64,000 nt of DNA from Alphaproteobacteria bacterium (lineage in GTDB: Bacteria; Pseudomonadota; Alphaproteobacteria; RF32; CAG-239). Under the pieces are notes generated by a model. The model was not told the DNA's origin. It searched no databases and saw only the letters and a program-made list of their open reading frames with translations. Position 1 is the stretch's first letter, and every line of letters begins with the position of its first letter. A program made the position numbers and the translations under genes. Below are positions 3,530 to 58,650 of this stretch, piece after piece. Where the stretch lies: assembly GCA_015062535.1 (NCBI GenBank), contig SUUK01000004.1, positions 62,001-126,000 on the forward strand, read 5' to 3'.

Positions 3530-6500
3530 TTAATATACTGGACAATATGCGACACTTCTTGATTGGTTATCCATAGCAACAATCGCAGCATTATCTGTTT
3601 CAAGAGATGCATTTCTATTAGCTTCAGCTTCCTTAACTGCTTCTTCAACACTTGTAGCTGTTGCTCCTGGAGAAATAACACTTAGTTCTCTTGTATCTTT
3701 ATCAAAAGCTTCAATATAATTTTTTATTTCCTCTAAACGCTCATCGACTTTAGATATATGTTTATTATAGCGAGTATTTGATTTGATTTCATTATATAGC
3801 TTTCTTGCTTCTTCAAGCTTTTGCGTCTTCACAGCATCTAATACACATGCGATAGATGTATAATAGCCTTTAGATGAATTAACATTAGCACATTTTTCGG
3901 TTGTTATATTATAATTAGTGTCTGATGAAGATGATGCCAAACCGCCATCTTCCATTATGCTCTTAGCACAAGCTTCAGTGTCTACATTACCTTCTTCGTC
4001 AACTTCTATACCTTTTACAACCATATTGCTATATTCGCCTAGCTGTTCACAAAGATTTTTTAATGTATCCAAAATTTCTTGCTTACTTTTATCGTAATTC
4101 TTTCTAGCATTAAACTCTGCATTTACGTTTTCTAAGAAAGAACCCATAACATTACGTTTAAATGATACTGTTTCTGCAAGCTGTCTATCTACATTATTTC
4201 TTTGATTTTTCTTATTTTCTAAATACTCAAAACTACTAGATAGAAGTTTTCTGTATTTTAATTTCTTTCCATCTACTCGTAAAAGTTGTGACAACTCACT
4301 ATGTTTTGTATACATTTCTTCAAAGCTTCCACCTTCAACCTTTTCTAGAGCAAAGTTTTTACTGTCTTTCTTAGAGCCATCAAAATCTGATAGTAAGTGT
4401 TGAATATATTTTGAGCTATAATATCCAACATCATGACATTGAACTCTTGCTGCTCCAGATGGAATATTTCCTGTGCGTCTAGTTATTTTTACCTTCTTGA
4501 TCTTATCGTGAGAATCCAAATCTATAACCTTACCTGATAATAGACATGGATATACACCACCTCGAGACAATACTTTGGTTGCCTCATCATTTTTAAATCT
4601 TTTTAAGTAATCTCTTATTTTATTTTGACCATATCCTCTCTCAACAAATGTTTGTTGATATTTTCCATCTCTTCTCATATTTGGACGAGCTAAGATGTAA
4701 TTCCAAACTTCAGGGAAATACTCATAGTCTTCATCTTGATATTTAAAGTCTAATAATGATGACAATGCAGGTGCTGGGTCTTTTTTCCTACCTGTCGTTG
4801 GAATTTCTTTATAATCTAAAGCACTGAAGTAGAATACTTCACGAAGAGGTGGTATTGATGCTAATGGTTCACGAGGAGCCATGTAGTCACAACCAGCATT
4901 CTTTTTGCTATCACCTCCATATGTACATCTATCTTCATCTGCAATATTTTCACTTACACCTCTTGCAGGCAATCCAACAAAATATTCACTGTCGGTTGTA
5001 ATAACTTTATCACTTGGAATACCAAATAACTCTCTTAAATTTATTCCTGCACTATTTAATACACTTTCATTTTCTGGAGTTGCCAAATCTTCAATCAACT
5101 TCAAGTGTCCAATTGTTATTTTACCTTTTTCTGGTTCTTCATTAGTTGATTTATATTCATTTACGGCATCTCTTGTTAAATAGTTTTCATGTGACATAAT
5201 GTCATATACACTACCCTTATTTGGACATGCTGGACTTACTTCATTGTCTCCTTCGCCTTCTAAACAAAGCTTAGCACCTGACCATTCATTTACTTCTTCA
5301 ATCGCTTTTTCTAGCTCTTGGTGAATAATTCTGTCTGACTGTGCAATGTATTCAACAATCTGCTTTGCCGCCTCATTTTTTATTGCTTCTTTTATTGCGT
5401 TAATAACTTTTTCAAAACTTGAATATGTTCCTGCTTCTAGTGTAACATTCATACCTAGATCTAATAGTTCACTAACTACTATCTCATTTGGTAAATTAAG
5501 AGCTCCCAAGCCTTTACTTATTTCGCTACCGATATTTTTAAGCCACTTTTCTTCTATTTGATTTTTCGCATATTTAATAGCTTCTTGCTTTGCTTTTGTA
5601 TCGTTAATTGATTTATTGTTTAGGTTTTGATAAAAGGCAGCGATTGTTACCATTAAATCATCATCACCTCTGTATTTTCCATTTTTAGCTTTCATACGAG
5701 GGCCATCTTCTTCTGCGACAAAATCCTCAAAATCACTATTTTCTTTTTCTATTTTTTCTTGAGCATCTTCTGCCATATCTATATATTTCTCAGCAAAATC
5801 TTCCGCTTTTTTCTCAAGCTCCTCATCAATTTTAATGATTTGTTGTTTGCTATCATCTATCAATATTTGTTTTTCATCTATCTTTTTATCCAAATTTTTA
5901 ATTTGTTTTTCTGCCTCTTTTATAGTTATAAAGCTATCTTTTTCGTTATAAACTTTACATCTTTGCTTATTGTTTGCTAATTCAATACATGTTTTACACT
6001 CTTTTGCATAGCTATTGCTAATACAATCACTTTCAAGAGCTAACATAACTATTGAATCGTTTAGCACATCTATTTCTTCTTTTATCTTTAGTGTTGGATT
6101 ATTATTTAATTTATCTATAAGCAGTCTCTTCTTTTGATCTATAGATTTTATATCATTATTAATCATTGTTAAGCGCTGTTTTGAATTTTCAAGCCTTGTT
6201 ACATATTCTTTTTTCTCTTCACGCGCCTTACTTAAATCTTTACTCCAACTTGTTCTATTTTGAATTAATCTCTTGCGTCTTGTTTTTAGATTTGTAACGT
6301 TTGTGTTGTACGCTTTTATATACTCTGCTATTATTTTTTCTTGAGTATCTTTCACACTCATTACATCATCTAATCTATCTGATGCAACCTCTCTTTTTCG
6401 TTTAGAGTTTTCAGCAGTAGTTTTAAGTTTAAGCACTTCTCCTTCTATTGTTGGCATACATCCACCTAACGTTGCTTTCATGAAGTTTTTAACAATACCA

Positions 6501-8977
6501 TTTATTGTATAATTCCAAGTTGGAGGACAGCCTGTGCTATTTTCCCCAATCTTTTCTATGATTGAAGTCGCATCAGCGCTTTCTTCTTTTTTAAGCTCTT
6601 CAGGATATGATTTCTCATCATTTTTAATGCTTAAATCAACGCTTCCAGATTTTGCTGTTGTTATTGCTCCACTCTTTTCTGGATTTTTTCCTTCTGTATA
6701 AGTTTGTTTTATAATATCAATGGTGCCTGCATTTTTCTTTTTAGCATAGCATTCTAAGTTAATCTCTTTACTTTTATTTACTGTATATTCATAAGATACA
6801 AGCTCTTTTTTTCCATCTCCATCTTTATCTTCCCACTTCGTACTTGTTGCAGTTTCAGTCCAAGTTGCTGTAACTTGATCTATATATTTATCTTCGCCAT
6901 TAACATATGCATACTCGTATCCTGCGCACATACCTTGTTTTGCCGCATATCTAATAGCTGAACCATCTTTAATAGCCTCATCAACTGTCTTTACAGCACT
7001 TATTTTCTTAACTAGATTTGCTACTGGCTCTTGTTCTATTTTTAATGGATCTTTAGAACTTTCGCTTCTTGCTATTTTATATGAAGCAAGAGCTTTATCT
7101 GTAGAACGAATAATCATTCTCATATTTCTATATTTATTTGTCATATACTCTTTTTGGATTTCTTGTTGGTCGTTCCATTGGGCAAATGTTAATTGACCTG
7201 ATCGTCCTAAATCACTAACAGCTTTTGCACCAATTCTCCAACTAGCCTCTGCTTTTTTGCGATTTTCTGTATCAATATCTTCAGCTTTTGTTCCGTCAAT
7301 TAGTCCTTCTGCCGCATCCTCATTATTATCATTATTAGCTGCTGGTGTTCCAGCTCCATCTTCGTCTTCATCATCACCTTTTTCATCATCTTCTTTTAAT
7401 ATCTCACCATAATTAGTAACCTTACTAGAATAGCTTCCTGCTGACATATCTGATGATGCTAACTCTACAACACATGGATATAATTTAGCATCAGTTTCAC
7501 AAGGATTATTTTTATCTGCAACATATCCTTCTGGACATGCATTTTCTTCATAATATCCATCACATGCTTTTGAATCTGTTCCTATAATTGTATCTGTGGT
7601 ATGTTGTTGATACTCTTCAATTAATTGTCTAGATACACCACCTCTTAATTCGTGTTGATTTGAAGTTACTTTAGAACCACCATACCATAAATTTACAGCA
7701 TCTTGCCTTCTTTTACTTGGAATATGTCTTTGAATAAAATCAACAACACAACTATCGCTTTCTTCTAAAACTTTAGCTGCTCTTTTTTTAATTTCTTCTG
7801 CCTTTAAGTATTTACGATATTGAGTTTTATAGTCTGGCAACTCACTTTTTAGATTATGTACTACCATTACTTCTGTTAGTAAATCCTCAATTGGTTGAAG
7901 CTTACTATTAATTTCTGTATCATCCATGGTTGTCAAATCTATTGTTGTTTTATTAACTCGAGGACAACCTTTTCCTCCATTTTTACACGCATCACTTTTA
8001 TTTATTTTCAAGTTTAACACATTACCTTTTAGATATTCTTTTACATTTAATTTTGCATTTGCATATTCTTTAGTTGAGTTATATGCAAATTGGAATTTAT
8101 TTTCTTTATTGATATTATTAAATGATGTTGTCATAGGTTCAACAGCATCAAGCTGTTTTGATGCATTGTATAGAGCTTCAATTGCTGTTAAATCCTCAAT
8201 AACTCTTAATAATCTATCATAAACTGTTGCTATAATATAAGCATTTGTACTTTCACCAACCATTCCTGCTTGGTCGCCTTCTGTTGTTGGTGTTTCTTCC
8301 ATTGTTGGATCTGTGTAACCTAATTGCATGCCAAAGAACACACAATCATTATCCCTTAATTCACCTATACGGCATTGGTCTAATCTGTTTATTGTTTTTT
8401 CTATTACATTCAATAAATCTTCATTCATTCTACCGGCAATATATGTATCAACAATCATATCTTGCTGATAGTCTAACTTTTTCTGTGCATATGCTTTTGC
8501 TAGAACTGAATAGTTTCCACTATAGCTATCCTTACTTGGTAATTGGAAAAATAGTTTGAAATAAGCATTATAATAAACTTCTTCATTTAATGCTTCTGGA
8601 CTATTTGCATCTGGTAAACCTAAATCACTATCTCTTAGGACTCCGCCTCTACCTGGAGTTTTGTTACCACCTTTTTTCTCACTCTTATTACTATTTAATA
8701 AACTTGCAAACTTGCCTTTTAGTGCTCCTTTAAGATCAAAATTACCAAGTTTTAGTCCAGCAAGACCGCCTGATAGACCATTTGTTTTTATACTTTGTAC
8801 CTTTCGATATATTGACTGAACATTTGATAAAACCTTATTAGCATTATTTGGAATATTGAACTCCAAATCCCAAGGCATAGGAGGTAAAAAGCCAAACGCC
8901 TTTGTTTCTGTTGTTACAGAGCATAAGATTACAGCACTTAATAACAAACATTTAAATAATTTAGATATGTTATTCAT
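3530..8977 (-). CDS. Giant exported coiled-coil protein of the T4SS cluster (1815 aa)
   Basis: I do not recognise a family for this protein. The ATG at 8977 is preferred over one 18 codons upstream because TAGGGAGG lies just before it and a signal peptide (about residues 1-27, ending ETKAF) begins there. The first mature residues (FGFLPPMPWDLEF, then a helical stretch) follow the same plan as the four exported proteins encoded upstream. There is an acidic linker near residue 530, long charged coiled-coil segments roughly at 870-1110, and scattered Cys residues including a CKTC cluster that suggest periplasmic disulfides. No further transmembrane helix is obvious. A region around residues 130-290 looks related to the C-terminal half of the neighbouring 433-residue protein (shared LDAVEP/LLTVEP ending). 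The gene lies in the virB4-virB8 interval and is probably cotranscribed with the T4SS. Confidence 0.8.
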   Translation of the reverse strand: MNNISKLFKCLLLSAVILCSVTTETKAFGFLPPMPWDLEFNIPNNANKVLSNVQSIYRKVQSIKTNGLSGGLAGLKLGNFDLKGALKGKFASLLNSNKSEKKGGNKTPGRGGVLRDSDLGLPDANSPEALNEEVYYNAYFKLFFQLPSKDSYSGNYSVLAKAYAQKKLDYQQDMIVDTYIAGRMNEDLLNVIEKTINRLDQCRIGELRDNDCVFFGMQLGYTDPTMEETPTTEGDQAGMVGESTNAYIIATVYDRLLRVIEDLTAIEALYNASKQLDAVEPMTTSFNNINKENKFQFAYNSTKEYANAKLNVKEYLKGNVLNLKINKSDACKNGGKGCPRVNKTTIDLTTMDDTEINSKLQPIEDLLTEVMVVHNLKSELPDYKTQYRKYLKAEEIKKRAAKVLEESDSCVVDFIQRHIPSKRRQDAVNLWYGGSKVTSNQHELRGGVSRQLIEEYQQHTTDTIIGTDSKACDGYYEENACPEGYVADKNNPCETDAKLYPCVVELASSDMSAGSYSSKVTNYGEILKEDDEKGDDEDEDGAGTPAANNDNNEDAAEGLIDGTKAEDIDTENRKKAEASWRIGAKAVSDLGRSGQLTFAQWNDQQEIQKEYMTNKYRNMRMIIRSTDKALASYKIARSESSKDPLKIEQEPVANLVKKISAVKTVDEAIKDGSAIRYAAKQGMCAGYEYAYVNGEDKYIDQVTATWTETATSTKWEDKDGDGKKELVSYEYTVNKSKEINLECYAKKKNAGTIDIIKQTYTEGKNPEKSGAITTAKSGSVDLSIKNDEKSYPEELKKEESADATSIIEKIGENSTGCPPTWNYTINGIVKNFMKATLGGCMPTIEGEVLKLKTTAENSKRKREVASDRLDDVMSVKDTQEKIIAEYIKAYNTNVTNLKTRRKRLIQNRTSWSKDLSKAREEKKEYVTRLENSKQRLTMINNDIKSIDQKKRLLIDKLNNNPTLKIKEEIDVLNDSIVMLALESDCISNSYAKECKTCIELANNKQRCKVYNEKDSFITIKEAEKQIKNLDKKIDEKQILIDDSKQQIIKIDEELEKKAEDFAEKYIDMAEDAQEKIEKENSDFEDFVAEEDGPRMKAKNGKYRGDDDLMVTIAAFYQNLNNKSINDTKAKQEAIKYAKNQIEEKWLKNIGSEISKGLGALNLPNEIVVSELLDLGMNVTLEAGTYSSFEKVINAIKEAIKNEAAKQIVEYIAQSDRIIHQELEKAIEEVNEWSGAKLCLEGEGDNEVSPACPNKGSVYDIMSHENYLTRDAVNEYKSTNEEPEKGKITIGHLKLIEDLATPENESVLNSAGINLRELFGIPSDKVITTDSEYFVGLPARGVSENIADEDRCTYGGDSKKNAGCDYMAPREPLASIPPLREVFYFSALDYKEIPTTGRKKDPAPALSSLLDFKYQDEDYEYFPEVWNYILARPNMRRDGKYQQTFVERGYGQNKIRDYLKRFKNDEATKVLSRGGVYPCLLSGKVIDLDSHDKIKKVKITRRTGNIPSGAARVQCHDVGYYSSKYIQHLLSDFDGSKKDSKNFALEKVEGGSFEEMYTKHSELSQLLRVDGKKLKYRKLLSSSFEYLENKKNQRNNVDRQLAETVSFKRNVMGSFLENVNAEFNARKNYDKSKQEILDTLKNLCEQLGEYSNMVVKGIEVDEEGNVDTEACAKSIMEDGGLASSSSDTNYNITTEKCANVNSSKGYYTSIACVLDAVKTQKLEEARKLYNEIKSNTRYNKHISKVDERLEEIKNYIEAFDKDTRELSVISPGATATSVEEAVKEAEANRNASLETDNAAIVAMDNQSRSVAYCPVY

Positions 8978-8987
8978 GGCGACCTCC

Positions 8988-10289
8988 CTATTTACTTTCC
9001 TTAAATGCGTCAATTCCGATGTTACCTTCATCTTCTATTGCTTTTACATATGAATCTGTTAGTTTATATTTTCCTAAATCAAAACCTTCGTACTCTTCTT
9101 CATCAACATTTCCCCTTCTACGAGGTTCTACTGTTAATAAATCTTTTGCTGCAATATATTGCAATTTTGCACTTTGCAATTTTGCATATAATAATAGAGC
9201 TCTCATATTTTCAACTTTTGTACCAGAATAGTAACCTATTGCTTGGAATTCACTATCTGTTGATCTTACACCATCATACATCTCTTTTATTAGATTTGTT
9301 CTTTCCGGTAATTCTCTACGAATAGTTGCTGTTACTTGCAATAAGTGTATTGCACTATTTACAACAAGATGCTTTCTATTTCTGGTTACTTTATCCATCT
9401 CTGTTTGATATGCTAACTTATCAACATCTCCAGTTATATTAAATTCACTATAAAAATATTTCTTAATGAACTTTTTATATTCATCTTCTTTTATAGTAAA
9501 ATTCTCAATAAGATTTTCATCATCCCAATTTAAATCGTTTACATCTCCAGCACCTATATTTACTTCTTCATCTTTAGATGCATCTAATGCTTTTATTCTA
9601 TCCTCATAAGCTTTATATTCAGGGTCTGCACTAGTTCCAATTATAGAAGCTTCTTTATCCAATAATTCAGAACTCTTTTCTAATTCTGTAATATTAGCTT
9701 CTAGCTCTTTTTGTCTTAATACTAATTCATCTAATTTAGATTGTGCTTCATCATATTTATCCCTAGCCTTACTAATTTCTTCTACATCATCACTATTTGC
9801 TTTTATTGTTTCATATTGAGTTTTCTGAATTTTCAAATTTTGTTCAGCTATTTTTATTTCTGTTTTTGTTTTTTTCAAATCAGTTTCTAGTTCTGTTTTA
9901 TTGTCTTTTAGTACATTCTGTTTGGTTTCATAATACATTTGGCTTGTTTTTTGATACTGTTGCTTATCATCCTCTAGTTGACCTTTTTCTTTACTTTTTG
10001 TATCTTCAACTATTGCTTTATCTGATTTAGAAAGTATTTTACCTTTATATTTTTTTAGATACTCTTTACCTTTTTTAAAAACGTCTAATTTACTAAAACC
10101 TTGTGTTGCAGTTTGTTTTATTTGTGATATTTGTTGAGTAATTTTGGTTACAGCATCAGTAACTTTTCCCATCCAGTCACTAATCTTTGCAGACAAAGAC
10201 ATTGGGTCTAGAATGAGCGCATCTGCAGGCTTTGTACCTACAAATGTTAGCATCATTATTATCATTATATAACTTGCTATTTTCCTCAT
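8988..10289 (-). CDS. Exported coiled-coil protein, VirB5-position (433 aa)
   Basis: A 433-residue exported protein. The signal peptide (1-25, ending PADAL) is followed by DPMSLSAKISDWMG and a helical stretch. Residues ~95-215 are a strongly charged coiled coil rich in K, E, Q and D. The C-terminal third is helical with a basic VEPRRRG motif. The start at 10289 has a G-rich TAGGGGGG site, and the gene ends 10 bases before the start of the giant protein. Signal peptide, short amphipathic segment and coiled coil recall VirB5, the periplasmic minor pilus subunit, but similarity by eye is weak. It shares ATQGF/AVQGF with the 239-residue neighbour and a C-terminal block with the giant protein. Function unassigned. 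Confidence 0.78.
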   Translation of the reverse strand: MRKIASYIMIIMMLTFVGTKPADALILDPMSLSAKISDWMGKVTDAVTKITQQISQIKQTATQGFSKLDVFKKGKEYLKKYKGKILSKSDKAIVEDTKSKEKGQLEDDKQQYQKTSQMYYETKQNVLKDNKTELETDLKKTKTEIKIAEQNLKIQKTQYETIKANSDDVEEISKARDKYDEAQSKLDELVLRQKELEANITELEKSSELLDKEASIIGTSADPEYKAYEDRIKALDASKDEEVNIGAGDVNDLNWDDENLIENFTIKEDEYKKFIKKYFYSEFNITGDVDKLAYQTEMDKVTRNRKHLVVNSAIHLLQVTATIRRELPERTNLIKEMYDGVRSTDSEFQAIGYYSGTKVENMRALLLYAKLQSAKLQYIAAKDLLTVEPRRRGNVDEEEYEGFDLGKYKLTDSYVKAIEDEGNIGIDAFKESK

Positions 10290-10302
10290 CTTATCCCCCC
10301 TA

Positions 10303-11022
10303 TTAATTACTCAACTGTTCGTCTAATTCATCTTTTTTTACGCTATTTTTTGAAAGTTCTTTAGTTGCATCAGCACCAATCATATATGCGCGTAATTCTA
10401 ATATTCTGCTTAGTCTTTCCTGACTTTTTAAGGTTAATGTATTATGTACAGCTAATATATCACTTTGACTTTCACCAATATCGTTACTGTATATTTCTTC
10501 AGCTTTTTCATTTCTTATACTTTGTCTTGTTGCCATTGCTTTTGCAAACAATATTGCAATTTCATCTGCTGTTACAGCATTTAATTCTTGCTTTTTCTTT
10601 GCTGTTGCTTCAAGAGAGTTTTTTTGTCCTTCTATAAATGTATAGTTTTCCATAATTTCCTTATCTAACCCTTTAGCTGATTCTGTTTTTAAGTTTGATG
10701 AAGCTAATTTTTCTGCTCCAGGAACTGTTCTAACACCAGTAATTGACTTTATACTGCCAATAGCGCCCTTTCCTAATGATCCAAGAGTTTTAATATCACA
10801 TTTTAGAGGATTAGCAAAACAGTTTGATGCAGCTTGGAAACCTTGAACGGCTCTTTTATAAGCATCCATTATTTTTTTCTGAACAGCTTCGATTTTGTTC
10901 ATTATCTCAGTTTTTAGCTCTAAACCTGATTGTATTGTTGCCATAACATCAATAATTGCATTTGCAGGTCTTGCAACTGATATCATTGATACTATTAAGG
11001 CTATCACAAATACTTTTTTCAT
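10303..11022 (-). CDS. Exported helical protein, best VirB5-like candidate (239 aa)
   Basis: A 239-residue exported protein close to the usual VirB5 size. The signal peptide ends ANAI at about residue 22. The mature N-terminus (IDVMATIQSGLELKTEIMNK) resembles the start of VirB5 proteins, where a short leader is followed by a long helix. Two Cys (in SNCFANPLKC) could form a disulfide. The C-terminal helix has a QERLSRILELRAYM segment that is typical in style for VirB5. The ribosome-binding site is GGGTGGAGGGA before ATG 11022. Of the five exported proteins in the block this is the one I would test first as the VirB5 pilus-tip subunit; family membership is inferred from architecture and position. 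Confidence 0.72.
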   Translation of the reverse strand: MKKVFVIALIVSMISVARPANAIIDVMATIQSGLELKTEIMNKIEAVQKKIMDAYKRAVQGFQAASNCFANPLKCDIKTLGSLGKGAIGSIKSITGVRTVPGAEKLASSNLKTESAKGLDKEIMENYTFIEGQKNSLEATAKKKQELNAVTADEIAILFAKAMATRQSIRNEKAEEIYSNDIGESQSDILAVHNTLTLKSQERLSRILELRAYMIGADATKELSKNSVKKDELDEQLSN

Positions 11023-11040
11023 ACTTTATCCCTCCACCCT

Positions 11041-13278
11041 TTACTCACTTTCTTCTGGAAAATAACTAAAATCAAAAGTTTGTAAATCTCTTAAAATTTG
11101 TGTTTGCAAATTAAGAGCATCTGTATCTACCATATTGAGCATTTGTTGTGTTCCATAATAGTTTATTTGAGCACCAGCTGCATAAGCATCACGAGCTTGA
11201 CTAATTTGCCTAATACCATCTTGCAAAGATACTATATTTATCTTTCCATTATCTAAACTGCTTACTGGAATATAATCTTCTGTTGAATTATAGTTTGCTA
11301 TAGTTGCTAATACTAAATTTTCAAAAGCTGCATCTTGTAATGCCATCCTTTGTCTATCTTTCCATTCTTTTTTAGTTGCATCAGATGCTTCTTCTTTTGA
11401 TTGTCCTTTAATATATCCTCTACTTGCTCCAGAGGCATACATGTACAAACATTCTTTTAATTTTTCTTCTTGGTCTGTTAGCTGTTCACCTTTTTTAATA
11501 GAAATATCTTCTGCCTTTATTCCACTTACAATTTTTTGATCATGACAATGATACAACATTACATTTGGAAAAACTTTTTGATTATCTGCTTCTATAACTC
11601 CTCCGTTATAATTAAGAGCGTCTTTCACTTCCTCATTATTTTCATCTCTTGTATCTATATAAATATCATTTTCTACAGAAAATATATTCACCATATCTTT
11701 TGCTCTAAATACAGCATCTACTTGACGAATCATACTCCAAAATCTTGGGCTCCAAAGTTCAATTGAAGCTAAGGCAGCTAGACCTGAAAGTGTGTTATCC
11801 ACATCACCTTTACTAATCATCTCTTCTAATGACTTAATTTCTGATTGATTTTCATTATCATCACCTCTAAAGCTAGATGCAAACTGCTTTGCTCTACTTA
11901 TTGTTACAATATTTGCAGAACTATAATCTTGAAGAATGTGCTTATAAACACCATCTTGTAAATAAGGCTTATATAAATCATCTTGAGATTTTTGTTCTTT
12001 TTTCGCCTCAGAAACACATACTCTCAACCAGTTGGGATTATTTAATTTTTTTAAATCATCCTTATCTTTATTATTACACATAAATTCTTTTGATATAAGA
12101 AAAGGACTTCCTTCTGATTGTTCATTATAAACAGCTACAGAAAAGACATTATTTTTCTTACTTGCAAAATTGAAAGAATATTTATCTCCTTGTGTCAAAT
12201 TAACTGGTCTTTTTAGTGGAACAGTTATTTTTTCATCAACAGACGGATTGCTTTTAAACGAAGATGTATCATTTTGTTCAGGTTCATCTTCATCAGAATA
12301 TTCTTTGCTATTACTTATAGAATCTAGCATTTCTTCTTTCAAGTTATCTATTTTTTCAACAACTGCATCAACTTGAGCAGAAAAACTATCTATAAGATTT
12401 TGAGACATTCCACTATCAAGTGAGTTTATTGTATCTTTAAATGTCTCACCTGCAGCCTTTAGCTGTTCAATGCTTATTTTACCTAAAGCATAATCATCTA
12501 TAGCTTTACTATATTGGCTATAAGCATCAGAGATACTTTCTGCATATTGAGTATCTATATTTTCTTTAGCTTGATTTATTGCGCTATTTGCTGTTTCTTT
12601 TAATTTATTAATATCATTTTTAAGATCATTAGCGCTTTGGTTTAATTTATTCTTAGCTTCTTCAGATAAATCTTGATTAGTATTTACTGCACCTACAATC
12701 ATATCGATAGATGTGTTTGCATTATCTAATGTTTCGTTTATATTATCTAAGGCTTCATCATATATTGCATTTATAGCATCTCTATTTGCTTCAGAAGCTT
12801 GTCGCGCTGCTTTTATTATTTCTTGAATATCACTACTATCATATCCACTCATTGCACTTTGATTTACGTTATTTACAGTTGATGATGCATTATCTTTTTC
12901 ATTATTTAAGTAGCCTTCAACTTTTCCTTTAACATCTTCAATTATACCTGTCATTTCATCAATAGCACCTTTTACTGTTTCAACAGCCTCTTCTATTGAT
13001 TCTTTTATTTTTGTTATAGTATTACGCAAGTCTGTCATGTATTTTTTCATTGTTGCTATTTGGTCACCAATAGCTTTAATTGTATTCATTACATTATCTA
13101 ACTGACTTTTTGCATTTGTAATTGTTGAAATCCCAGTTGTTATTGAATTAACAAATGATGATATTTGAGTAATATCAATACATGGCCAAATAAAAGCTTT
13201 TGCAGGGTTAGATAAAACCAAACTACAACATAAGGCAACTATGCCTAATATTTTTTTAGTTGTTGTTTTAATCTTCAT
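11041..13278 (-). CDS. Exported coiled-coil protein of the T4SS cluster (745 aa)
   Basis: No clear family. A signal peptide (1-28, ending NPAKAF) is followed by IWPCIDITQISSFV, very like the mature start of the next gene upstream (FWPVFDFTEIAPVY). Residues ~45-345 are an almost continuous helical coiled coil (many N, K, D, A). A more globular region follows with several Cys, and the last 100 residues are helical with YAAGAQINYYGTQQML. The translation start at 13278 has a strong AGGGAGGG site. The leader around it pairs over 13 contiguous bases with the second hairpin loop of the non-coding locus at 58140-58197. It lies 18 bases before the next gene. Likely a periplasmic or secreted T4SS accessory protein. 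Confidence 0.78.
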   Translation of the reverse strand: MKIKTTTKKILGIVALCCSLVLSNPAKAFIWPCIDITQISSFVNSITTGISTITNAKSQLDNVMNTIKAIGDQIATMKKYMTDLRNTITKIKESIEEAVETVKGAIDEMTGIIEDVKGKVEGYLNNEKDNASSTVNNVNQSAMSGYDSSDIQEIIKAARQASEANRDAINAIYDEALDNINETLDNANTSIDMIVGAVNTNQDLSEEAKNKLNQSANDLKNDINKLKETANSAINQAKENIDTQYAESISDAYSQYSKAIDDYALGKISIEQLKAAGETFKDTINSLDSGMSQNLIDSFSAQVDAVVEKIDNLKEEMLDSISNSKEYSDEDEPEQNDTSSFKSNPSVDEKITVPLKRPVNLTQGDKYSFNFASKKNNVFSVAVYNEQSEGSPFLISKEFMCNNKDKDDLKKLNNPNWLRVCVSEAKKEQKSQDDLYKPYLQDGVYKHILQDYSSANIVTISRAKQFASSFRGDDNENQSEIKSLEEMISKGDVDNTLSGLAALASIELWSPRFWSMIRQVDAVFRAKDMVNIFSVENDIYIDTRDENNEEVKDALNYNGGVIEADNQKVFPNVMLYHCHDQKIVSGIKAEDISIKKGEQLTDQEEKLKECLYMYASGASRGYIKGQSKEEASDATKKEWKDRQRMALQDAAFENLVLATIANYNSTEDYIPVSSLDNGKINIVSLQDGIRQISQARDAYAAGAQINYYGTQQMLNMVDTDALNLQTQILRDLQTFDFSYFPEESE

Positions 13279-13320
13279 GTCAGTCCCTCCCTAATAATCT
13301 ATACTCTAATTATCATCACT

Positions 13321-14757
13321 TTATACTTTTGAAACAACTTTATCTTCTGCTTTTTTTACATTATCACTTAAGATTGTTAACTCTTTTTGCATGGTTTTTA
13401 TTGAATTTTCTATATTTTGCATAACACTATTATCAGGAGTTACTTTTATTGATGCAATAGATTTTTTTAAGTTTACTCCTGCATCTTTTAATTCTTTTTT
13501 AGTTGCATCTCCTTTTACATATGCAATTGCTATTTTTTCATAGTTTTTATAACCGCCAACTATTTTATCATTGTATTCTTGGTTATAGTTATCTTTTATT
13601 GCTTCTATTACCCCTACAAGTCTTTTAGATGTTTCTTCTTGTTTTTGTTTAATGTCTGATATTTTTTGTAATAAATCTTTTTTATCTTCTTCTTCAATAT
13701 TTTGCGCTTTATTTATTACATATTCCATTTGTCTTAATTTTTCTTGATTGTACTCAAAGTTTTTATGAACTGTATTTAATGATATATCTAATAAATCATT
13801 TAATTGTTCACTCAAAGAGGCGCTTTCTGATAAAATCAAAGCAATATTTTCCTTTATAGAATCAATTCTTAATTGATCTTCTGCCTCAGAAACTTCTTCC
13901 TCCTCTTCTTCCTCTTCAATAAACATAGGAACTAAATTTCCATCTGTCTTTTTCAATGCTCCTTTACTTAAATTTTTATTTGGCAATGAAATGCCACTAT
14001 TCTTTTCATTATTTGCCGGAGCGATACTACCACTTCCTAGACTTGTTTTAGGAAGTAAAATACCTGTACTTGGTTTTAATTCTTTATTACCGCTTCCTGT
14101 TGATGGAGTAATGCTACCATTTCCTAGACTTGGCTCAGGAAGTAAAATACCTGTACTTGGTTTTAATTCTTTATTACCGCTTCCTGTTGATGGAGTAATG
14201 CTACCATTTCCTAGACTTGGCTCAGGAAGTAAAATATCTGTACTTGGTTTTAATTCTTTATTACCGCTATCTATATTGCCATCTGCTATGCTTTCTTCTG
14301 TTGAGATGTCTTTATATTTATTATCATCTTTATCATCAGAAACTCCCGTCATACTTTCTGTAGACCCTACTCCAACATTAGCCATTTCACTATTTCCAGC
14401 CTCTACATTCTTTGCAGCATCATTAGCCCCTTTACCTGCTTTTAAGTCTACACCAAGAGTACCTGCCACATCATTTGCTGCATTCTTTATTGTCTCTGCT
14501 GCATTTGTAATTTGAGTACTAATATCTTTAGCAAAAGCACCTAAGCCATTAATGGTATTTCCTAATGCACTTAGGTTATCTTTTAACTCTATAAGTTGGC
14601 CCTTTAAATTTTTAAGAGATTCAAGGGTAGTACTAACTTGAGAATAAACAGGAGCAATTTCTGTAAAATCAAATACTGGCCAAAAAGCTTTTGCTGGCTT
14701 TCCCACAATTAAAGCACAGCAAAACAACACAGCTATTAAGCTTTTAGACTTCATCAT
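13321..14757 (-). CDS. Exported coiled-coil protein with 29-residue repeats (478 aa)
   Basis: The reading frame extends to 14826, but the start is placed at ATG 14757 (or 14754) because AGGGAGGAG lies just upstream and the signal peptide (ending KPAKAF) begins there. The mature start FWPVFDFTEIAPVY is shared with the 745-residue neighbour. A helical segment (about 30-90) resembles the first helix of VirB5 proteins. Then come near-identical 29-residue repeats (unit beginning GNKELKPSTGILLPEPS), a run of eight Glu, and a C-terminal coiled coil of ~180 residues. It is the first gene after virB4, where virB5 often sits. The repeats suggest an extended, possibly surface-exposed spacer. Function unknown. 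Confidence 0.76.
   Translation of the reverse strand: MMKSKSLIAVLFCCALIVGKPAKAFWPVFDFTEIAPVYSQVSTTLESLKNLKGQLIELKDNLSALGNTINGLGAFAKDISTQITNAAETIKNAANDVAGTLGVDLKAGKGANDAAKNVEAGNSEMANVGVGSTESMTGVSDDKDDNKYKDISTEESIADGNIDSGNKELKPSTDILLPEPSLGNGSITPSTGSGNKELKPSTGILLPEPSLGNGSITPSTGSGNKELKPSTGILLPKTSLGSGSIAPANNEKNSGISLPNKNLSKGALKKTDGNLVPMFIEEEEEEEEVSEAEDQLRIDSIKENIALILSESASLSEQLNDLLDISLNTVHKNFEYNQEKLRQMEYVINKAQNIEEEDKKDLLQKISDIKQKQEETSKRLVGVIEAIKDNYNQEYNDKIVGGYKNYEKIAIAYVKGDATKKELKDAGVNLKKSIASIKVTPDNSVMQNIENSIKTMQKELTILSDNVKKAEDKVVSKV
14016..14268 (-). repeat. 87-bp in-frame tandem repeats
   Basis: Copies start at 14050, 14137 and 14224, an exact period of 87 bases (29 codons). The first two copies are almost identical, the third is partial, and a degenerate piece lies at 14016-14049. 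The repeats keep the reading frame of the exported protein. Their near-identity points to recent duplication and possible copy-number variation between strains. Confidence 0.92.
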
Positions 14758-14831
14758 AATACTCCTCCCTAGTAGAATAATATAATTCTTAGCGCATATA
14801 GTATCATATTTTTTAAATTTTGTCAAGACTT

Positions 14832-17282
14832 TTATCCTCCAAAACCTTCCAAATATTTTGTAACAAACGCTTCTTCACCATACTCTCTAATCAAGCTTTC
14901 AACCAACAATACGTTTTTAATACTAGAATTGTATAACTTAAGATATGGACCAAGCCCTCCTAAATTAACATCCAATATCACAGACTCTCCTCTACCATCA
15001 TCAGCATCAGGTCTCTTTAATAATATAGCATAAGGACAATCTCTATACGTTCTTCCTTCAATAAAGTCATATTCACTTGCTGTTAAATTCCATTTTTCAT
15101 ATGATTCAGGTGTTGCTTGAGTGTTTCTAAAGAATATCATTGTTTTACATTGCCCACGAACAGCATCACCCACACCTAATGTATCAACAATATTTGGCTG
15201 TTGGAAAGCGCAAAGATAAGCTTGTCTTTTTTTACGTCCCTCTTGAAGACCTTTGATAAAGTTATCTCTAAACATTTCATGCTTTAACATAGGCGCGGTC
15301 TCGTCGATCATAATAAGTGCAGGCGAACCAGTTTCTGTACTTTCTGATTGAATTCTATGCATAATATAGCTAATAGATGCTGCAGCTAATACATCATCAT
15401 CAAAAATTTCTGTAAAGTCAAAGGCTACAAATCTATTGCCACTCAAATCAAGACTATCATGATCTGCATTAAAAATATTACCGTATTGCTCTGGATTTAT
15501 CCATCGATATAATTCTCTACGCATACTTCCTGTTGGAGAAAAGCAACTCTTGTATAGATTTTTTAACTTTCTTTCTTCTGGGCGTAAATATTCAAATGCT
15601 GTTGTTACAGCACGAGACGCTTCTCTTTCAGATAAAGCATCTGTTGCCATAGTAATAGATCTTAACCAGTTTCGCAAAAAGTCCCTATTTGATCTAGTAT
15701 CTCTTGTATCAAAAGGATTGAGCGATACGTTTTTGCGCTCACCACTAAATCCTACATATGCCCCCCTTACTGTCCGTGTAAATATTTCTGCACCGCGGTG
15801 ACGGTCAAAGAAGTATACTTTTAAGTCTTCATGACGCATAGCTTGGCCAGCTAAAAACGTCAATAAAGTTGTTTTACCTTGACCTGTTGGACCAACAATA
15901 CAACAGTGAGCAACTGCAGCCTCACCTGCGGTAATATGAAATTGGAAACGATAAGGAGAACCTGTCATTGTCCTAAATACTGTAATAGCTCCTTCACCCC
16001 AGTCAGATCTTGGCAAACCTGTTGAAATTTGTTCAAACGAAACAGCTAGCGCCACAATTCTAGATAAATAGAAATATGTCCTACCACATGTGTCATATCC
16101 AGGAAACTGATTAAAGAATGTTGCTTGAGCTATCCAGTTTTCTCTAACAGGTGTTACACTAAATAAACGGCAAATTCTTTGTATTTCACTTTCAGCAAAT
16201 TCTATTTCTTCTAAGCTATCACCTTTAACAAGAAAGTTCATAGAATATTGAACAAGAGACTGATGATCTGCATCACTATCTTCTATTGCACTTAGAGCTT
16301 CACTATATTGAGAAACTACACCCGATGAAAAGCTTGTAGCTGTCGCCATTTTTTGCTGTTGCATTAAAATAGCTCTAGCTTTTGGCGTGTATAAAGGCAC
16401 AAGACTGTGCAACATTGTCATTTCGCAGTCTATAGACATTAATGACGAAACCATTGCTTCATCCATATAGTCACCAGAACTTCTAATACCAATTGTTAAA
16501 ACATATTTAGTTTTAGTGCCTGAAAAAAACTTAATAATACCTTCTTCACCTGTAAAATGAATCCCTTCAGAAGTCATAAGTTCTTTTAATTGAAATCCTA
16601 CTGCTTTTCTTGCTTTTGGTTTAGGTTTACTAATAGGATTTAAGACTCTCACAAATGGGTATATAGGACTTTGCTCTGCAGGGCTATTTTCATCTTCATA
16701 CATAACCCTTATACCATAATCATTTAAGTTAGCTATTGTAGACTGAGATGCTGTATTTAAATCTTTTATAGCATCTTTTCTATCTGGCACCGATAAAATG
16801 ATATAATGATCATTCTTATAAACTCTTGTTAAACTTTCTTTCCATTTACCATCAACCTTTTCAAGCCAAGGGTTACCAAAATTAGATTTATTCTCTGCAA
16901 GCTCAGCTCTTTCTCTAATAGTATATATACGACAATTTACTTGCGTACTTGATATATTATCTATCCACGATTTACGAGCTTCAAACATTGACATAATAAC
17001 TTCTTCTCTTGCCGCAGTTAAGTCTACACCATCAATTTTAAACACTCTAACATACGATCCATTACTACATCTTAATGTTGTACCATCAGAAAGAAGTCTA
17101 TCAAAAGGCAAAAAGTCAGCCACCCTTGTCTCACTTGGCTGAGGCAATACTTTTGCACCAATCTTAGAAACCAAAGACACAGAGATTAAACCAGCAGCAA
17201 TAATACCTAGCAAAGCCACAAAAACTTCTATACTTTGCAGTCCCTCCATAAATAGTGTATAAAAATCAAAATTAAGGCTCAA
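14832..17282 (-). CDS. virB4: VirB4 T4SS ATPase
   Basis: An 816-residue VirB4/TrbE family ATPase, the inner-membrane motor that energises T4SS assembly and substrate transfer. A hydrophobic segment lies near residues 18-42. The Walker A motif GPTGQGKTT is at about 464-472, and the Walker B strand ALIMIDET near 657. Length is normal for the family. The start is a TTG at 17282 with a GGGGAAT site upstream, overlapping the end of virB3 by 11 bases, which implies translational coupling; the next ATG (17249) has no ribosome-binding site. It is followed 74 bases later by the five exported-protein genes. Strong assignment. Confidence 0.95.
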   Translation of the reverse strand: MSLNFDFYTLFMEGLQSIEVFVALLGIIAAGLISVSLVSKIGAKVLPQPSETRVADFLPFDRLLSDGTTLRCSNGSYVRVFKIDGVDLTAAREEVIMSMFEARKSWIDNISSTQVNCRIYTIRERAELAENKSNFGNPWLEKVDGKWKESLTRVYKNDHYIILSVPDRKDAIKDLNTASQSTIANLNDYGIRVMYEDENSPAEQSPIYPFVRVLNPISKPKPKARKAVGFQLKELMTSEGIHFTGEEGIIKFFSGTKTKYVLTIGIRSSGDYMDEAMVSSLMSIDCEMTMLHSLVPLYTPKARAILMQQQKMATATSFSSGVVSQYSEALSAIEDSDADHQSLVQYSMNFLVKGDSLEEIEFAESEIQRICRLFSVTPVRENWIAQATFFNQFPGYDTCGRTYFYLSRIVALAVSFEQISTGLPRSDWGEGAITVFRTMTGSPYRFQFHITAGEAAVAHCCIVGPTGQGKTTLLTFLAGQAMRHEDLKVYFFDRHRGAEIFTRTVRGAYVGFSGERKNVSLNPFDTRDTRSNRDFLRNWLRSITMATDALSEREASRAVTTAFEYLRPEERKLKNLYKSCFSPTGSMRRELYRWINPEQYGNIFNADHDSLDLSGNRFVAFDFTEIFDDDVLAAASISYIMHRIQSESTETGSPALIMIDETAPMLKHEMFRDNFIKGLQEGRKKRQAYLCAFQQPNIVDTLGVGDAVRGQCKTMIFFRNTQATPESYEKWNLTASEYDFIEGRTYRDCPYAILLKRPDADDGRGESVILDVNLGGLGPYLKLYNSSIKNVLLVESLIREYGEEAFVTKYLEGFGG

Positions 17283-17562
17283 ATTTATTCCCCTTTACTT
17301 TGTAAAGATTAGTTGATTGCAAATTTGTAGCTCCATAGGCTTGAAGCATTCCAGACAAATGCGGATCTTTTGCACTAAGAACCACAACGAAAAGATGTCC
17401 CAAAACTATTGTTATGATAAATATAAGAGGGTTAGCATCAGCCATACCGATTGCCATAAACATAAAAGGAATCTGAAGCCCTGCATTTAAAGCAGCAGGC
17501 AACACAGCCCCCCAAAACAATTTTGGAGGATTAGCAACAGCTTTTAATATTACATCCCTCAT
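17272..17562 (-). CDS. virB3: VirB3 inner-membrane T4SS protein
   Basis: A 96-residue protein with two adjacent hydrophobic helices (about residues 20-40 and 42-62) after a short basic/polar N-terminus (VANPPKLFWGA), then a conserved DPHL segment. This is the VirB3 plan (PF05101). VirB3 associates with VirB4 at the inner membrane, and in some systems the two are fused; here the genes overlap by 11 bases. It lies between the VirB2-like genes and virB4, the canonical order. Confidence 0.9.
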   Translation of the reverse strand: MRDVILKAVANPPKLFWGAVLPAALNAGLQIPFMFMAIGMADANPLIFIITIVLGHLFVVVLSAKDPHLSGMLQAYGATNLQSTNLYKVKGNKFEP

Positions 17563-17675
17563 AATTAACCTCTTAACATACTTTATAGTAGTATATCATG
17601 TTAAATATTACGAAATGATTAAATTTTATATTATTTATATGATTTTATAAACAAGATATATCAAAAAACAAAAAT

Positions 17676-18062
17676 CTACTTACACAAACCACTATAACAA
17701 GAACCCGTTTGACCTGCATTTTTATAATTTTCACCAAATTCATGATCAGCAACGAGACTTGAACTCTGATCCATCGCATTATCTGTTACATAATCGATCA
17801 ACGCACCAACAGCTGAAACCATGAACAAGCTAAGCGTGATATAACCAAGGTGTTTGAAATTTATTTTTCCACTAATTGCTAAAAATGTAAACATTATTAG
17901 ACCAAAACCACTTAACACATATGCTAAATTTCTTAATCCAATAGCAAAAACACCCGCCCTCGTGGAAAGAGTGCCAAAAATATTAGCATTTGCATCAAAA
18001 CACACAAACATGCTAAGAAAAACATACATAGCAACCAATATAAATTTCAAATTCCTTCTCAT
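17676..18062 (-). CDS. virB2: VirB2-like pilin (third copy, with Cys-containing tail)
   Basis: A 128-residue VirB2/TrbC-like pilin. The start is set at ATG 18062, preceded by AAGGAGGG, rather than the longer upstream extension. A signal peptide ends near NANI; two hydrophobic helices follow, separated by the short polar loop GKINFKH, as in VirB2. Unlike the other two copies it has a polar C-terminal tail of ~30 residues ending GSCYSGLCK with two Cys. It is 10 bases downstream of the second copy. Probably a minor or specialised pilus subunit; that role is inference. Confidence 0.82.
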   Translation of the reverse strand: MRRNLKFILVAMYVFLSMFVCFDANANIFGTLSTRAGVFAIGLRNLAYVLSGFGLIMFTFLAISGKINFKHLGYITLSLFMVSAVGALIDYVTDNAMDQSSSLVADHEFGENYKNAGQTGSCYSGLCK

Positions 18063-18072
18063 AACACCCTCC

Positions 18073-18384
18073 TTACTCACCATTCAAGTTCACATCAACG
18101 CCATCCGCAAACAATTGTATAAAACCAGAGCATGATGCGATTACTATCAAACCAACAACTATTGCCATTAACCACTTCCAGTTGATATTACCAAAAAAAC
18201 CACCTATACACACACAAATAACACCAATTGCAGAAGCCGGATATATAATACTCCTTAAACCTACAAATATATTTGTACCAGAAGTCTTCAAACCCGTAAA
18301 CTGAGCCCACGCACTATCAGGAAGCAAAATCACGATAGTCGCAAGAACAACAAATAAAATAAACGACTTATCTAACTTAAACAT
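18073..18384 (-). CDS. virB2: VirB2-like pilin (second copy)
   Basis: A 103-residue VirB2-like protein. The start is ATG 18384, because GGGAGGGAGG at 18400-18391 is an ideal ribosome-binding site; the longer frame to 18402 would run through that site. A signal peptide ends SAWAQ, and two hydrophobic helices flank the loop GNINWKW, matching GKVKWTW and GKINFKH in the other copies. The leader from about 18408 to 18384 is 23/25 identical to the third loop sequence (plus strand) of the hairpin locus at 58205-58266, so this mRNA is the best candidate target of that RNA. It follows an intrinsic terminator and has its own putative promoter. Confidence 0.85.
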   Translation of the reverse strand: MFKLDKSFILFVVLATIVILLPDSAWAQFTGLKTSGTNIFVGLRSIIYPASAIGVICVCIGGFFGNINWKWLMAIVVGLIVIASCSGFIQLFADGVDVNLNGE

Positions 18385-18413
18385 AACATACCTCCCTCCC
18401 AATTATATCTTTT

Positions 18414-18442
18414 ATCATACCACATTTTTTCTAATTTTTCCA
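18414..18442 (-). promoter_or_regulatory. Putative promoter for virB2 copies 2-3 and downstream T4SS genes
   Basis: On the minus strand a TGG-extended -10 TATGAT (18419-18414) lies 17 bases after TGGAAA (18442-18437). It is just downstream of the terminator that follows the first virB2, and it would let the rest of the operon be expressed independently. Consensus match is moderate. Confidence 0.42.
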
Positions 18443-18540
18443 CTAAAAAAAGACATCCTTAAAAACTTCCAACACATTGTTTTATAACTATTTTTACTGC
18501 TTGTAACAAAAGTTTAATATTGTAAACTTTTATTTATATA

Positions 18541-18574
18541 AAAAAGTATCGGGAGCAAAACTCCCGATACTTTA
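18541..18574 (-). terminator. Intrinsic terminator/attenuator after the first virB2
   Basis: A perfect 13-bp stem (AAAGTATCGGGAG/CTCCCGATACTTT, 18543-18573) with a five-base loop is followed on the minus strand by a T-rich run. It separates the first virB2 from the other T4SS genes, so this pilin can be made in excess while partial read-through feeds the operon. Confidence 0.85.
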
Positions 18575-18597
18575 TTTTGTTTAGTGATACACACAGA

Positions 18598-18975
18598 TTA
18601 TTCACCAGTACCACCAGCAATACCTGTACCAGCACCTTCAAATGTATCTATCACTTCTGCGTTATGTGCTGCACCTCTACCCATTATATCACCTGTTGCG
18701 TAGTTTACAATAGATGCTGCAGCAGCCAAGATAGCCATACCAACTGCAAGACCTGCAAACCATGTCCATTTTACTTTACCGAAAATAGCTTGGAAAGCAA
18801 TACCTACTAAACCGAAACCACCTACAACAAAGATAATAATTTTAACGTGGTTAAAAATTGTAACAGCTTTTTCTGTCGCTGTGTTCATAACTTGCGCATG
18901 AGATGCATCCGCAAATAATAAAGTAAACAAGAATGCTAAAGAGCACAATGTTAACATTTTTTTCAAGTTTCTCAT
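18598..18975 (-). CDS. virB2: VirB2-like major T4SS pilin (first copy)
   Basis: A 125-residue VirB2/TrbC-like pilin. The start is ATG 18975 after TAGGAGAACG; the frame upstream to 19035 overlaps the promoter. A signal peptide ends DASHAQ. Two hydrophobic helices are separated by GKVKWTWF, the short cytoplasmic loop of VirB2 pilins, and the C-terminus is Gly/Ala-rich. As first gene behind its own promoter and followed directly by a strong terminator it is the likely major T-pilus subunit. Two diverged copies follow. Its start is divergent from the type IVb pilus cluster, 294 bases away. Confidence 0.88.
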   Translation of the reverse strand: MRNLKKMLTLCSLAFLFTLLFADASHAQVMNTATEKAVTIFNHVKIIIFVVGGFGLVGIAFQAIFGKVKWTWFAGLAVGMAILAAAASIVNYATGDIMGRGAAHNAEVIDTFEGAGTGIAGGTGE

Positions 18976-19006
18976 TTTCGTTCTCCTAAATTTATTACAC
19001 ATTATT

Positions 19007-58032: not shown

Positions 58033-58062
58033 AAAAAAACCGCCAGAGCACATTCTGGCGGT
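58033..58062 (-). terminator. Terminator of the hairpin-array RNA
   Basis: A 9-bp GC-rich stem ACCGCCAGA/TCTGGCGGT (58039-58047, 58054-58062) with a six-base loop is followed on the minus strand by seven T. On the plus strand no T run follows. This fixes the likely direction of the non-coding transcript as minus. Confidence 0.9.
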
Positions 58063-58068
58063 ATACAA

Positions 58069-58127
58069 ATAAGCCACTTTAATATTTTATAAAGTAAGGG
58101 AGATGAGATATGAGCTAAGTGGCTTAT
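58069..58127 (-). repeat. Hairpin unit 1
   Basis: Arms ATAAGCCACTT and AAGTGGCTTAT pair without mismatch. The loop (58080-58116, plus strand) has AAGGGAGATGAGATATGAG. It lies nearest the terminator. On the minus strand it is preceded by a run of ten T that would also follow unit 2. Confidence 0.88.
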
Positions 58128-58139
58128 AAAAAAAAAGAA

Positions 58140-58197
58140 AATAAGCCGCGTTTTAAGATATTAGGGAGGGAGATTGAATTATGAGCAGCGGCTTATT
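58140..58197 (-). repeat. Hairpin unit 2
   Basis: Arms AATAAGCCGC and GCGGCTTATT are perfect complements. The loop (58150-58187) has TTAGGGAGGGAGATT on the plus strand. Compared with unit 1 both sides of the stem change together at the third position from the loop, a compensatory pattern. On the minus strand T-rich sequence follows the stem, so unit 2 could itself terminate. Confidence 0.88.
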
Positions 58198-58204
58198 AAA
58201 GGGA

Positions 58205-58266
58205 AAATAAACCGATTAAGATATATTTGGGAGGGAGATATGATAAATGAGAAAATCGGTTTATTT
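58205..58266 (-). repeat. Hairpin unit 3
   Basis: Arms AAATAAACCGATT and AATCGGTTTATTT form a perfect 13-bp stem. The loop (58218-58253) has TTTGGGAGGGAGATATG on the plus strand. That segment and its flank are 23/25 identical to the leader of the second virB2-like gene (18384-18408), so the minus-strand loop is nearly fully complementary to that mRNA start. Confidence 0.9.
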
Positions 58267-58442
58267 ATGGGGGTGAGGCACCTCTTGACTTCCACATTCG
58301 TGGAGGACAATCTTTATTATTCTTCTTTTTATTTAGGATATTAATGCGAAATATCAAAAGATACCCCAATGGTCTATATAAGTAATAACTTAAGCAAAAT
58401 CTTTATTTTTTTTGTGATTTGTTTCAACCACCTTATATAGAC

Positions 58443-58470
58443 AAAATACACAAAAAATAATATTTGTCAA
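58443..58470 (-). promoter_or_regulatory. Putative promoter of the hairpin-array RNA
   Basis: TTGACA (58470-58465), 16 bases, TATTTT (58448-58443) on the minus strand. Immediately downstream is GTCTATATAAG (58442-58432), with its exact inverse CTTATATAGAC at 58382-58372, possible paired operator sites around the transcription start. No other element in the AT-rich stretch 58471-58600 could be supported. Confidence 0.45.
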
Positions 58471-58610
58471 CAATATTTTTCATTTTTTTTGATTTTTTTC
58501 TTTTAAATCCGTCCATCACACTGTTTTTACGCACATATTTTTTTGACAAATTTATTGATTAACCGACCTATTTTCATAACACACACTAGACTTGCCCACT
58601 CTCCAAACCC

Positions 58611-58650
58611 GTCATCCCTCGATTGCGTCAGCAATCGTCAAGGGATCTCT
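58611..58650. repeat. REP-like palindromic intergenic element
   Basis: GTCATCCCT, stem CGATTGC, loop GTCA, stem GCAATCG, then a three-base bulge and AGGG pairing with CCCT. The GTCATCCC...GGGATC frame resembles dispersed palindromic repeats found between genes in many Alphaproteobacteria. Only one copy is seen in the window. Confidence 0.5.

What the first reader, a model, noticed from the sequence alone, without database searches (positions are those of the whole stretch)
18384..18408. Hairpin-3 loop is almost fully complementary to the leader of a virB2-like gene
The minus-strand loop of unit 3 (58217-58241 region) matches the complement of the virB2 copy-2 ribosome-binding region in 23 of 25 positions; one of the two differences leaves a G-U pair. 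The match extends past the Shine-Dalgarno core on both sides (TATATCTT on one, CATA on the other), more than a purine-rich RBS alone would give. The RNA may repress this T4SS pilin; alternatively a plus-strand transcript would mimic the leader and act as a decoy.
Basis: seen in the sequence. Interest (0 to 1): 0.85.

Follow-up and report, generated by a model that had tools for sequence, protein, structure and literature searches.

The report
Three-hairpin anti-ribosome-site RNA near T4SS
A gut alphaproteobacterium carries a small-RNA gene with three open loops complementary to ribosome-binding sites, and its best predicted target in the sampled genome is the start of the secretion-pilus gene virB2, so the RNA may turn down a whole secretion machine; this is a new variant of a known kind of regulator, and its targets are unproven.

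Summary
The match is real, but its frame is off by 3 nt. Window 18387-18411 (-), the virB2 copy-2 leader, pairs with the loop at 58242-58218 (-): 23 Watson-Crick pairs, 1 G-U, 1 mismatch. It is the only non-self site in the whole genome at 3 or fewer mismatches. By duplex energy it ranks first of 407 sampled leaders (-37.8 kcal/mol; next -29.9).

The hairpins belong to a minus-strand small-RNA gene (about 58435-58033) with a promoter, three hairpins whose long open loops carry an anti-Shine-Dalgarno core, and a terminator. Stems covary. The gene occurs in 8 of 18 congeneric genomes and was not found as an array elsewhere in 153 genomes of the order. It resembles alpha-r14/cuckoo RNAs such as NfeR1, but core, stems and locus differ, so I do not file it as a member.

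Type IV secretion operon leaders as a set match the loops better than other genes in four genomes, also after correcting for ribosome-site strength. The extra-long virB2 match is not conserved in relatives, and flank scores as good occur in about 1% of loop-leader pairs. Best reading: an anti-SD RNA that dampens T4SS translation, with virB2 the strongest target here. The plus-strand decoy idea is disfavoured.

The parts
58443..58470 (-). promoter of the small-RNA gene: TTGACA, 16 nt, TATTTT, within a conserved block TTGACA...TGTGTA(A/T)TTT..TGTCYATA(A/T)AAG
   Evidence: a similar block lies 144-221 nt upstream of the first hairpin in all 8 genomes with the array
58033..58435 (-). predicted small-RNA transcript (about 400 nt; both ends inferred)
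   Evidence: fold z-score -6.75
58268..58330 (-). 5' region with small stems and a further CCUCC in a partly open stretch
   Evidence: the region varies between species
58205..58266 (-). hairpin unit 3 (first transcribed): 13-bp stem AAATAAACCGATT, 36-nt loop with UCUCCCUCCC
58218..58242 (-). loop-3 stretch complementary to the virB2 copy-2 leader (23 WC + 1 GU of 25)
58140..58197 (-). hairpin unit 2: stem AATAAGCCGC, loop with UCUCCCUCCCU
58069..58127 (-). hairpin unit 1: stem ATAAGCCACTT, loop with UCUCCCUU
58033..58062 (-). intrinsic terminator ACCGCCAGA...TCTGGCGGTTTTTTT
18387..18411 (-). virB2 copy-2 leader: predicted target of loop 3; directly follows a -10-like TATGAT, so it may be nearly the whole 5' UTR (inferred)
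18073..18384 (-). virB2 copy-2 pilin gene (TrbC/VirB2, Pfam E 6e-10 for the longer ORF 18073-18402), first gene after a putative promoter
11041..13278 (-). 745-aa coiled-coil protein of the T4SS operon; leader AGATTATTAGGGAGGGACTGACATG is the second-best non-array site for loop 2
13285..13304 (-). conserved leader motif of the 745-aa gene (GATTATTAGGGAGG or close to it in most congeners)
3530..18981 (-). T4SS operon (virB2 copies, 96-aa gene in VirB3 position, virB4, coiled-coil proteins, 1815-aa protein) whose leaders as a set match the loops best

Best explanation
The hairpin array is a minus-strand trans-acting small-RNA gene. It makes an RNA of about 400 nt with three large, single-stranded loops, each carrying a U/C-rich anti-Shine-Dalgarno core (UCUCCCUCCC; UCUCCCUU in unit 1) and closed by a covarying stem. 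Each loop can pair with the ribosome-binding region of an mRNA and block initiation. Targets are mRNAs with the uncommon GGGAGG(G)-type site, above all leaders of the type IV secretion operon: virB2 copy 2 through loop 3, the 745-aa gene through loop 2. Loop 1 may take dnaA. Shown by computation: gene anatomy, strand, conservation, loop accessibility, rank of the targets. Inferred: transcription, pairing in the cell, repression, any role of Hfq (which is encoded), and the signal that turns the RNA on.
For: Promoter and terminator on the minus strand, the promoter block conserved in 8 species. Stem covariation: 7 of 11 pairs with changes on both sides, 98.3% of cells paired against 27-47% when slid. 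Loops open: cost 0.2-0.4 kcal/mol. Genome-unique virB2 match, rank 1 outside the array among 46,216 windows. Leaders only: virB2 1st, dnaA 2nd, 745-aa gene 3rd of 407 in the own genome; 745-aa gene 1st of 173 in G005 and 2nd of 322 in G012; virB2 1st of 115 in G017. T4SS leaders against the rest: p = 8e-7, 3e-4, 1e-3, 3e-3; after regressing out 16S anti-SD energy p = 4e-5, 0.016, 0.006, 0.012. GGGAGG leaders: 4/10 T4SS, 2/397 others. Hfq encoded.
Against: The virB2 extension is not conserved: the cognate leader ranks 1st only in the own genome and 4th-13th of 15 in the 7 relatives. Flank gains as large occur in about 1% of loop-leader pairs. T4SS leaders keep GGGAGG sites in species without the array (G008, G009, G010, G014, G016), so the leaders were not shaped by this RNA alone. 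The bare core already ranks virB2 first. T4SS leaders also have stronger than average ribosome sites in general. The virB2 site costs about 6.6 kcal/mol to open. No expression data.
Confidence: 0.55

Rival explanations
1. A broad anti-SD repressor without a dedicated T4SS regulon. The loops hit any mRNA with a strong purine-rich site, as proposed for BbsR14 of Bartonella, and the extended virB2 match is a by-product.
For: Loop cores are the conserved part and flanks vary. Loop energy correlates with 16S anti-SD energy across leaders, r about 0.5-0.6. dnaA and other non-T4SS leaders rank high. Flank z of -4 or lower is found for 12 of 1221 pairs.
Against: The core fits GGGAGGG (3 of 407 leaders), not the common AGGAG (80 of 407). 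T4SS enrichment remains after correction for 16S anti-SD energy in four genomes.
Confidence: 0.27
2. The virB2 match is coincidence on top of a shared ribosome-site core; the RNA's true targets lie elsewhere, for example dnaA.
For: No conservation of the virB2 extension in relatives. dnaA leader is 2nd of 407 in the own genome and 3rd of 322 in G012, and EcpR1 of Sinorhizobium represses dnaA by a loop (PMC4414408).
Against: -37.8 kcal/mol against -29.9 for the next site, genome-unique; virB2 also 1st in G017. The dnaA leader is equally conserved in G011, where no array was found.
Confidence: 0.13
3. A plus-strand RNA carries Shine-Dalgarno-like loops and acts as a decoy for the repressor, for ribosomes or for a CsrA-type protein.
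For: The plus-strand loops look like GGGAGGGAGAU...AUG. The plus strand also folds well, z -7.78.
Against: Conserved promoter and terminator are on the minus strand. Seven stem cells are G-U on the minus strand and would be A-C on the plus strand. In the plus-strand minimum-energy fold parts of loops 1 and 3 are paired.
Confidence: 0.04

Closest known systems
alpha-r14 / cuckoo RNAs, e.g. NfeR1 of Sinorhizobium meliloti (PMC10746234)
   Same: Three hairpins, each with an anti-SD motif in its unpaired part; alphaproteobacteria; the motifs are reported as redundant and pair at the target's translation start (ntrB).
   Different: Core is UCUCCCUCCC, not CCUCCUCCC; loops are 22-50 nt with flanks that vary by unit and species; stems share AATAARCC; no match to an Rfam family; different gene neighbourhood.
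CcsR1-4 of Rhodobacter sphaeroides (CIN1 locus; PMC10253847)
   Same: A tandem cluster of homologous small RNAs in one transcript that ends in a Rho-independent terminator; alphaproteobacteria.
   Different: CcsR RNAs are co-transcribed with a DUF1127 protein; no DUF1127 gene was found in any of the 18 genomes.
BbsR14 of Bartonella bacilliformis (PMC7717549)
   Same: Stem-loops with anti-SD motifs in an alphaproteobacterium.
   Different: [quoted passage not shown] its seed regions are described as solely anti-SD, without extension.
EcpR1 of Sinorhizobium meliloti (PMC4414408)
   Same: A loop that pairs with the dnaA 5' UTR over ribosome site and start codon.
   Different: Two hairpins, GC-rich loop motif UCCGCCGCAUCU; here dnaA is only a prediction for one loop.

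Membership tests
alpha-r14 / cuckoo RNA (NfeR1) | Three hairpins, each with an anti-SD motif in the unpaired region | tested here: met
   three units in the own genome, 1-4 clear units in the 8 genomes
alpha-r14 / cuckoo RNA (NfeR1) | Identical, ultraconserved motif CCUCCUCCC (PMC10746234) | tested here: not met
   core is UCUCCCUCCC, with variants UCUCCCUU, UCUCCUUCC, UCUCUCCCU
alpha-r14 / cuckoo RNA (NfeR1) | Stems that differ strongly in sequence between hairpins | tested here: not met
   outer stem AATAARCC shared by nearly all units, inner pairs covary
alpha-r14 / cuckoo RNA (NfeR1) | Match to a curated covariance model | tested here: inconclusive
   no Rfam family matched at gathering score, and only chance-level matches at E<=10; whether the library holds an alpha-r14 model was not checked
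CcsR / CIN1 locus | Co-transcription with a DUF1127 protein | tested here: not met
   no PF06568 match in 18 genomes; the control search rang only in E. coli, so sensitivity for short proteins may be limited
Trans-acting sRNA repressing T4SS translation | Independent promoter and terminator | tested here: met
   (consensus matches; promoter block conserved)
Trans-acting sRNA repressing T4SS translation | Base pairing over the ribosome site of T4SS mRNAs, better than other genes | tested here: met
   (computational only; extension in virB2 not conserved)
Trans-acting sRNA repressing T4SS translation | Repression in vivo | not testable with these tools
   needs a reporter assay

The most novel reading that the evidence does not exclude
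A modular, multi-target anti-SD RNA in which each hairpin loop is individually fitted to the leader of a different gene, so that one transcript ties the T4SS (virB2, 745-aa gene) to replication initiation (dnaA), and loops are re-fitted from species to species.
Probability: 0.15. Interest if true: 0.75.

Novelty: new variant of a known kind. Interest (0 to 1): 0.5.

Why it matters
If true, an uncultured gut alphaproteobacterial genus controls a whole secretion machine after transcription through one RNA with several anti-ribosome-site loops. Eight species with diverging loops give a natural series for asking how anti-SD RNAs gain specificity from the sequence around a generic core.

Tried and rejected
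Plus-strand decoy or CsrA-type sponge: rejected on promoter, terminator and wobble asymmetry. Known Rfam family: none. One-to-one coevolution of loop and virB2 leader: tested with an 8 x 15 matrix, not supported. Full-length target for the conserved loop-2 sequence: no site outside the arrays at 3 or fewer mismatches in 18 genomes. Hidden arrays in species without a model hit: other TCTCCCTCCC sites are not in such hairpins. The flank z-score scan timed out before G012. A pyrE search for named relatives found none; a DnaA search did. Gene starts in the leader scans come from a simple ORF and ribosome-site heuristic, not a gene finder.

Full report
Observation. The claimed match is in the sequence. 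The virB2 copy-2 leader, read on the minus strand, is AAGATATAATTGGGAGGGAGGTATG (18411-18387); the plus strand of unit 3 reads AAGATATATTTGGGAGGGAGATATG (58218-58242). Pairing the minus-strand loop with the leader gives 23 Watson-Crick pairs, one G-U and one mismatch. Shuffles of the window give no match at 3 or fewer mismatches, and in the 1.73-Mb genome the leader is the only match besides the array.

How unusual. I paired the three loops with 46,216 windows of 50 nt from the window and a 399-kb sample of the genome. Outside the array, loop 3 pairs best with the virB2 leader (-37.8 kcal/mol, next -29.9), loop 2 with the same leader (-30.9) and then with the leader of the 745-aa T4SS gene (-27.7), and loop 1 with a leader at L101:9861 (-29.9) that belongs to dnaA (named DnaA from its sequence, from my own knowledge of the family; conserved homologues genus-wide). 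The bare core TCTCCCTCCC also ranks virB2 first, so part of the score is the ribosome site itself. With the core fixed and the flanks shuffled, the virB2 flank gain has z = -4.1, p = 0.001. As calibration, 12 of 1221 loop x leader pairs in the genome reach z of -4 or lower. The flank extension alone is therefore roughly a 1% event; the sum of core and flanks is what is unique.

What the array is. On the minus strand there is a TTGACA-16-TATTTT promoter (58470-58443), a 5' region with small stems, three hairpins and an intrinsic terminator (58062-58033). The loops, about 36-38 nt each, are open in the fold, with an opening cost of 0.2-0.4 kcal/mol. DNA and covariance-model searches found the same gene in 7 further species of the genus, with 1-4 clear hairpins of this kind, a conserved promoter block 144-221 nt upstream of the first hairpin, and terminator-like hairpins downstream. 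In 16 hairpins from 6 genomes, 98.3% of stem cells pair and 7 of 11 pairs show changes on both sides; slid controls pair 27-47%. Seven cells are G-U pairs, which would be A-C on the other strand, so the minus strand is the likelier RNA. The loop core is the conserved part and the flanks vary. No Rfam family matches. In 153 genomes of the order, arrays were found only in these 8; the weak hits elsewhere are 31-38-nt stretches, too short to be such a unit. On a dnaA tree the presence is patchy on both sides of the midpoint root, which fits one old gene with losses, although the label is not clustered more than chance. The host is an uncultured gut alphaproteobacterium; named relatives are rumen and gut MAGs.

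Targets. Among leaders only, in the own genome virB2 is 1st, dnaA 2nd and the 745-aa gene 3rd of 407; in G005 the 745-aa gene is 1st of 173; in G012 it is 2nd and dnaA 3rd of 322, the 1st being another gene within the same fetched T4SS region; in G017 virB2 is 1st of 115. As a set, T4SS operon leaders pair better than the rest in all four genomes (p = 8e-7, 3e-4, 1e-3, 3e-3). They also have stronger ribosome sites in general, but the preference remains after regressing out the 16S anti-SD energy (p = 4e-5, 0.016, 0.006, 0.012). In the own genome 4 of 10 T4SS leaders have GGGAGG against 2 of 397 others. The four genomes are relatives, so these p-values are not independent.

What does not fit. 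The virB2 extension is not shared: across 8 genomes the cognate virB2 leader is the best partner of the loops only in the own genome. T4SS leaders keep GGGAGG sites in species without the array, and the dnaA leader is nearly invariant in all species where it was found, including G011, where no array was found. So loop and leader have not visibly changed together, except perhaps in G017, where the odd site GGAGAGATGAG meets a loop with CTCATCTCTCC. Two species (G003, G011) lack both the virB2 homologue and the array, but two are too few for a test.

Comparison. Cuckoo or alpha-r14 RNAs such as NfeR1 have three hairpins, each with CCUCCUCCC unpaired, and silence ntrB at its start (PMC10746234). 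This RNA works like them, if it works as proposed. The exact core and the strongly differing stems were tested and not met, and the DUF1127 partner of the CcsR/CIN1 type (PMC10253847) is missing, so I do not call it a member. BbsR14 of Bartonella (PMC7717549) and EcpR1 (dnaA; PMC4414408) are further parallels. In Brucella, links between small RNAs and VirB have been reported, with the direct mechanism left open (PMC9751625).

Verdict. Observation confirmed; interpretation partly supported. The find is larger than the match: a conserved small-RNA gene with several anti-SD loops whose best predicted targets are T4SS leaders. Whether each loop is fitted to one leader or all act as generic anti-SD loops is open.

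Noticed in passing
L101:9861-9910 (own genome, C11 about 39.9 kb): The dnaA leader (AATATCTAANGTGGGAGATGGATATGG) is nearly invariant across the genus and is the best non-array site for loop 1; the invariance is also seen in G011, where no array was found.
   Followed up: partly
13285-13304 (-) and orthologous leaders: The 745-aa T4SS gene has a conserved leader GATTATTAGGGAGG in most congeners, also where no array was found; the reason is unknown.
   Followed up: partly
17676-18981 (-): Three small VirB2-like genes in a row, two with TrbC/VirB2 Pfam matches; their leaders differ strongly.
   Followed up: no
58715-59332 (-): A type IV prepilin-like gene (Bundlin/PilS) lies upstream of the small-RNA gene; pyrE lies downstream. 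A pyrE-like neighbour is also seen in G007 and G013.
   Followed up: partly
58600-58650: A palindromic stretch (GATTGCGTCAGCAATC) in the intergenic region beside the array looks like a dispersed repeat.
   Followed up: no
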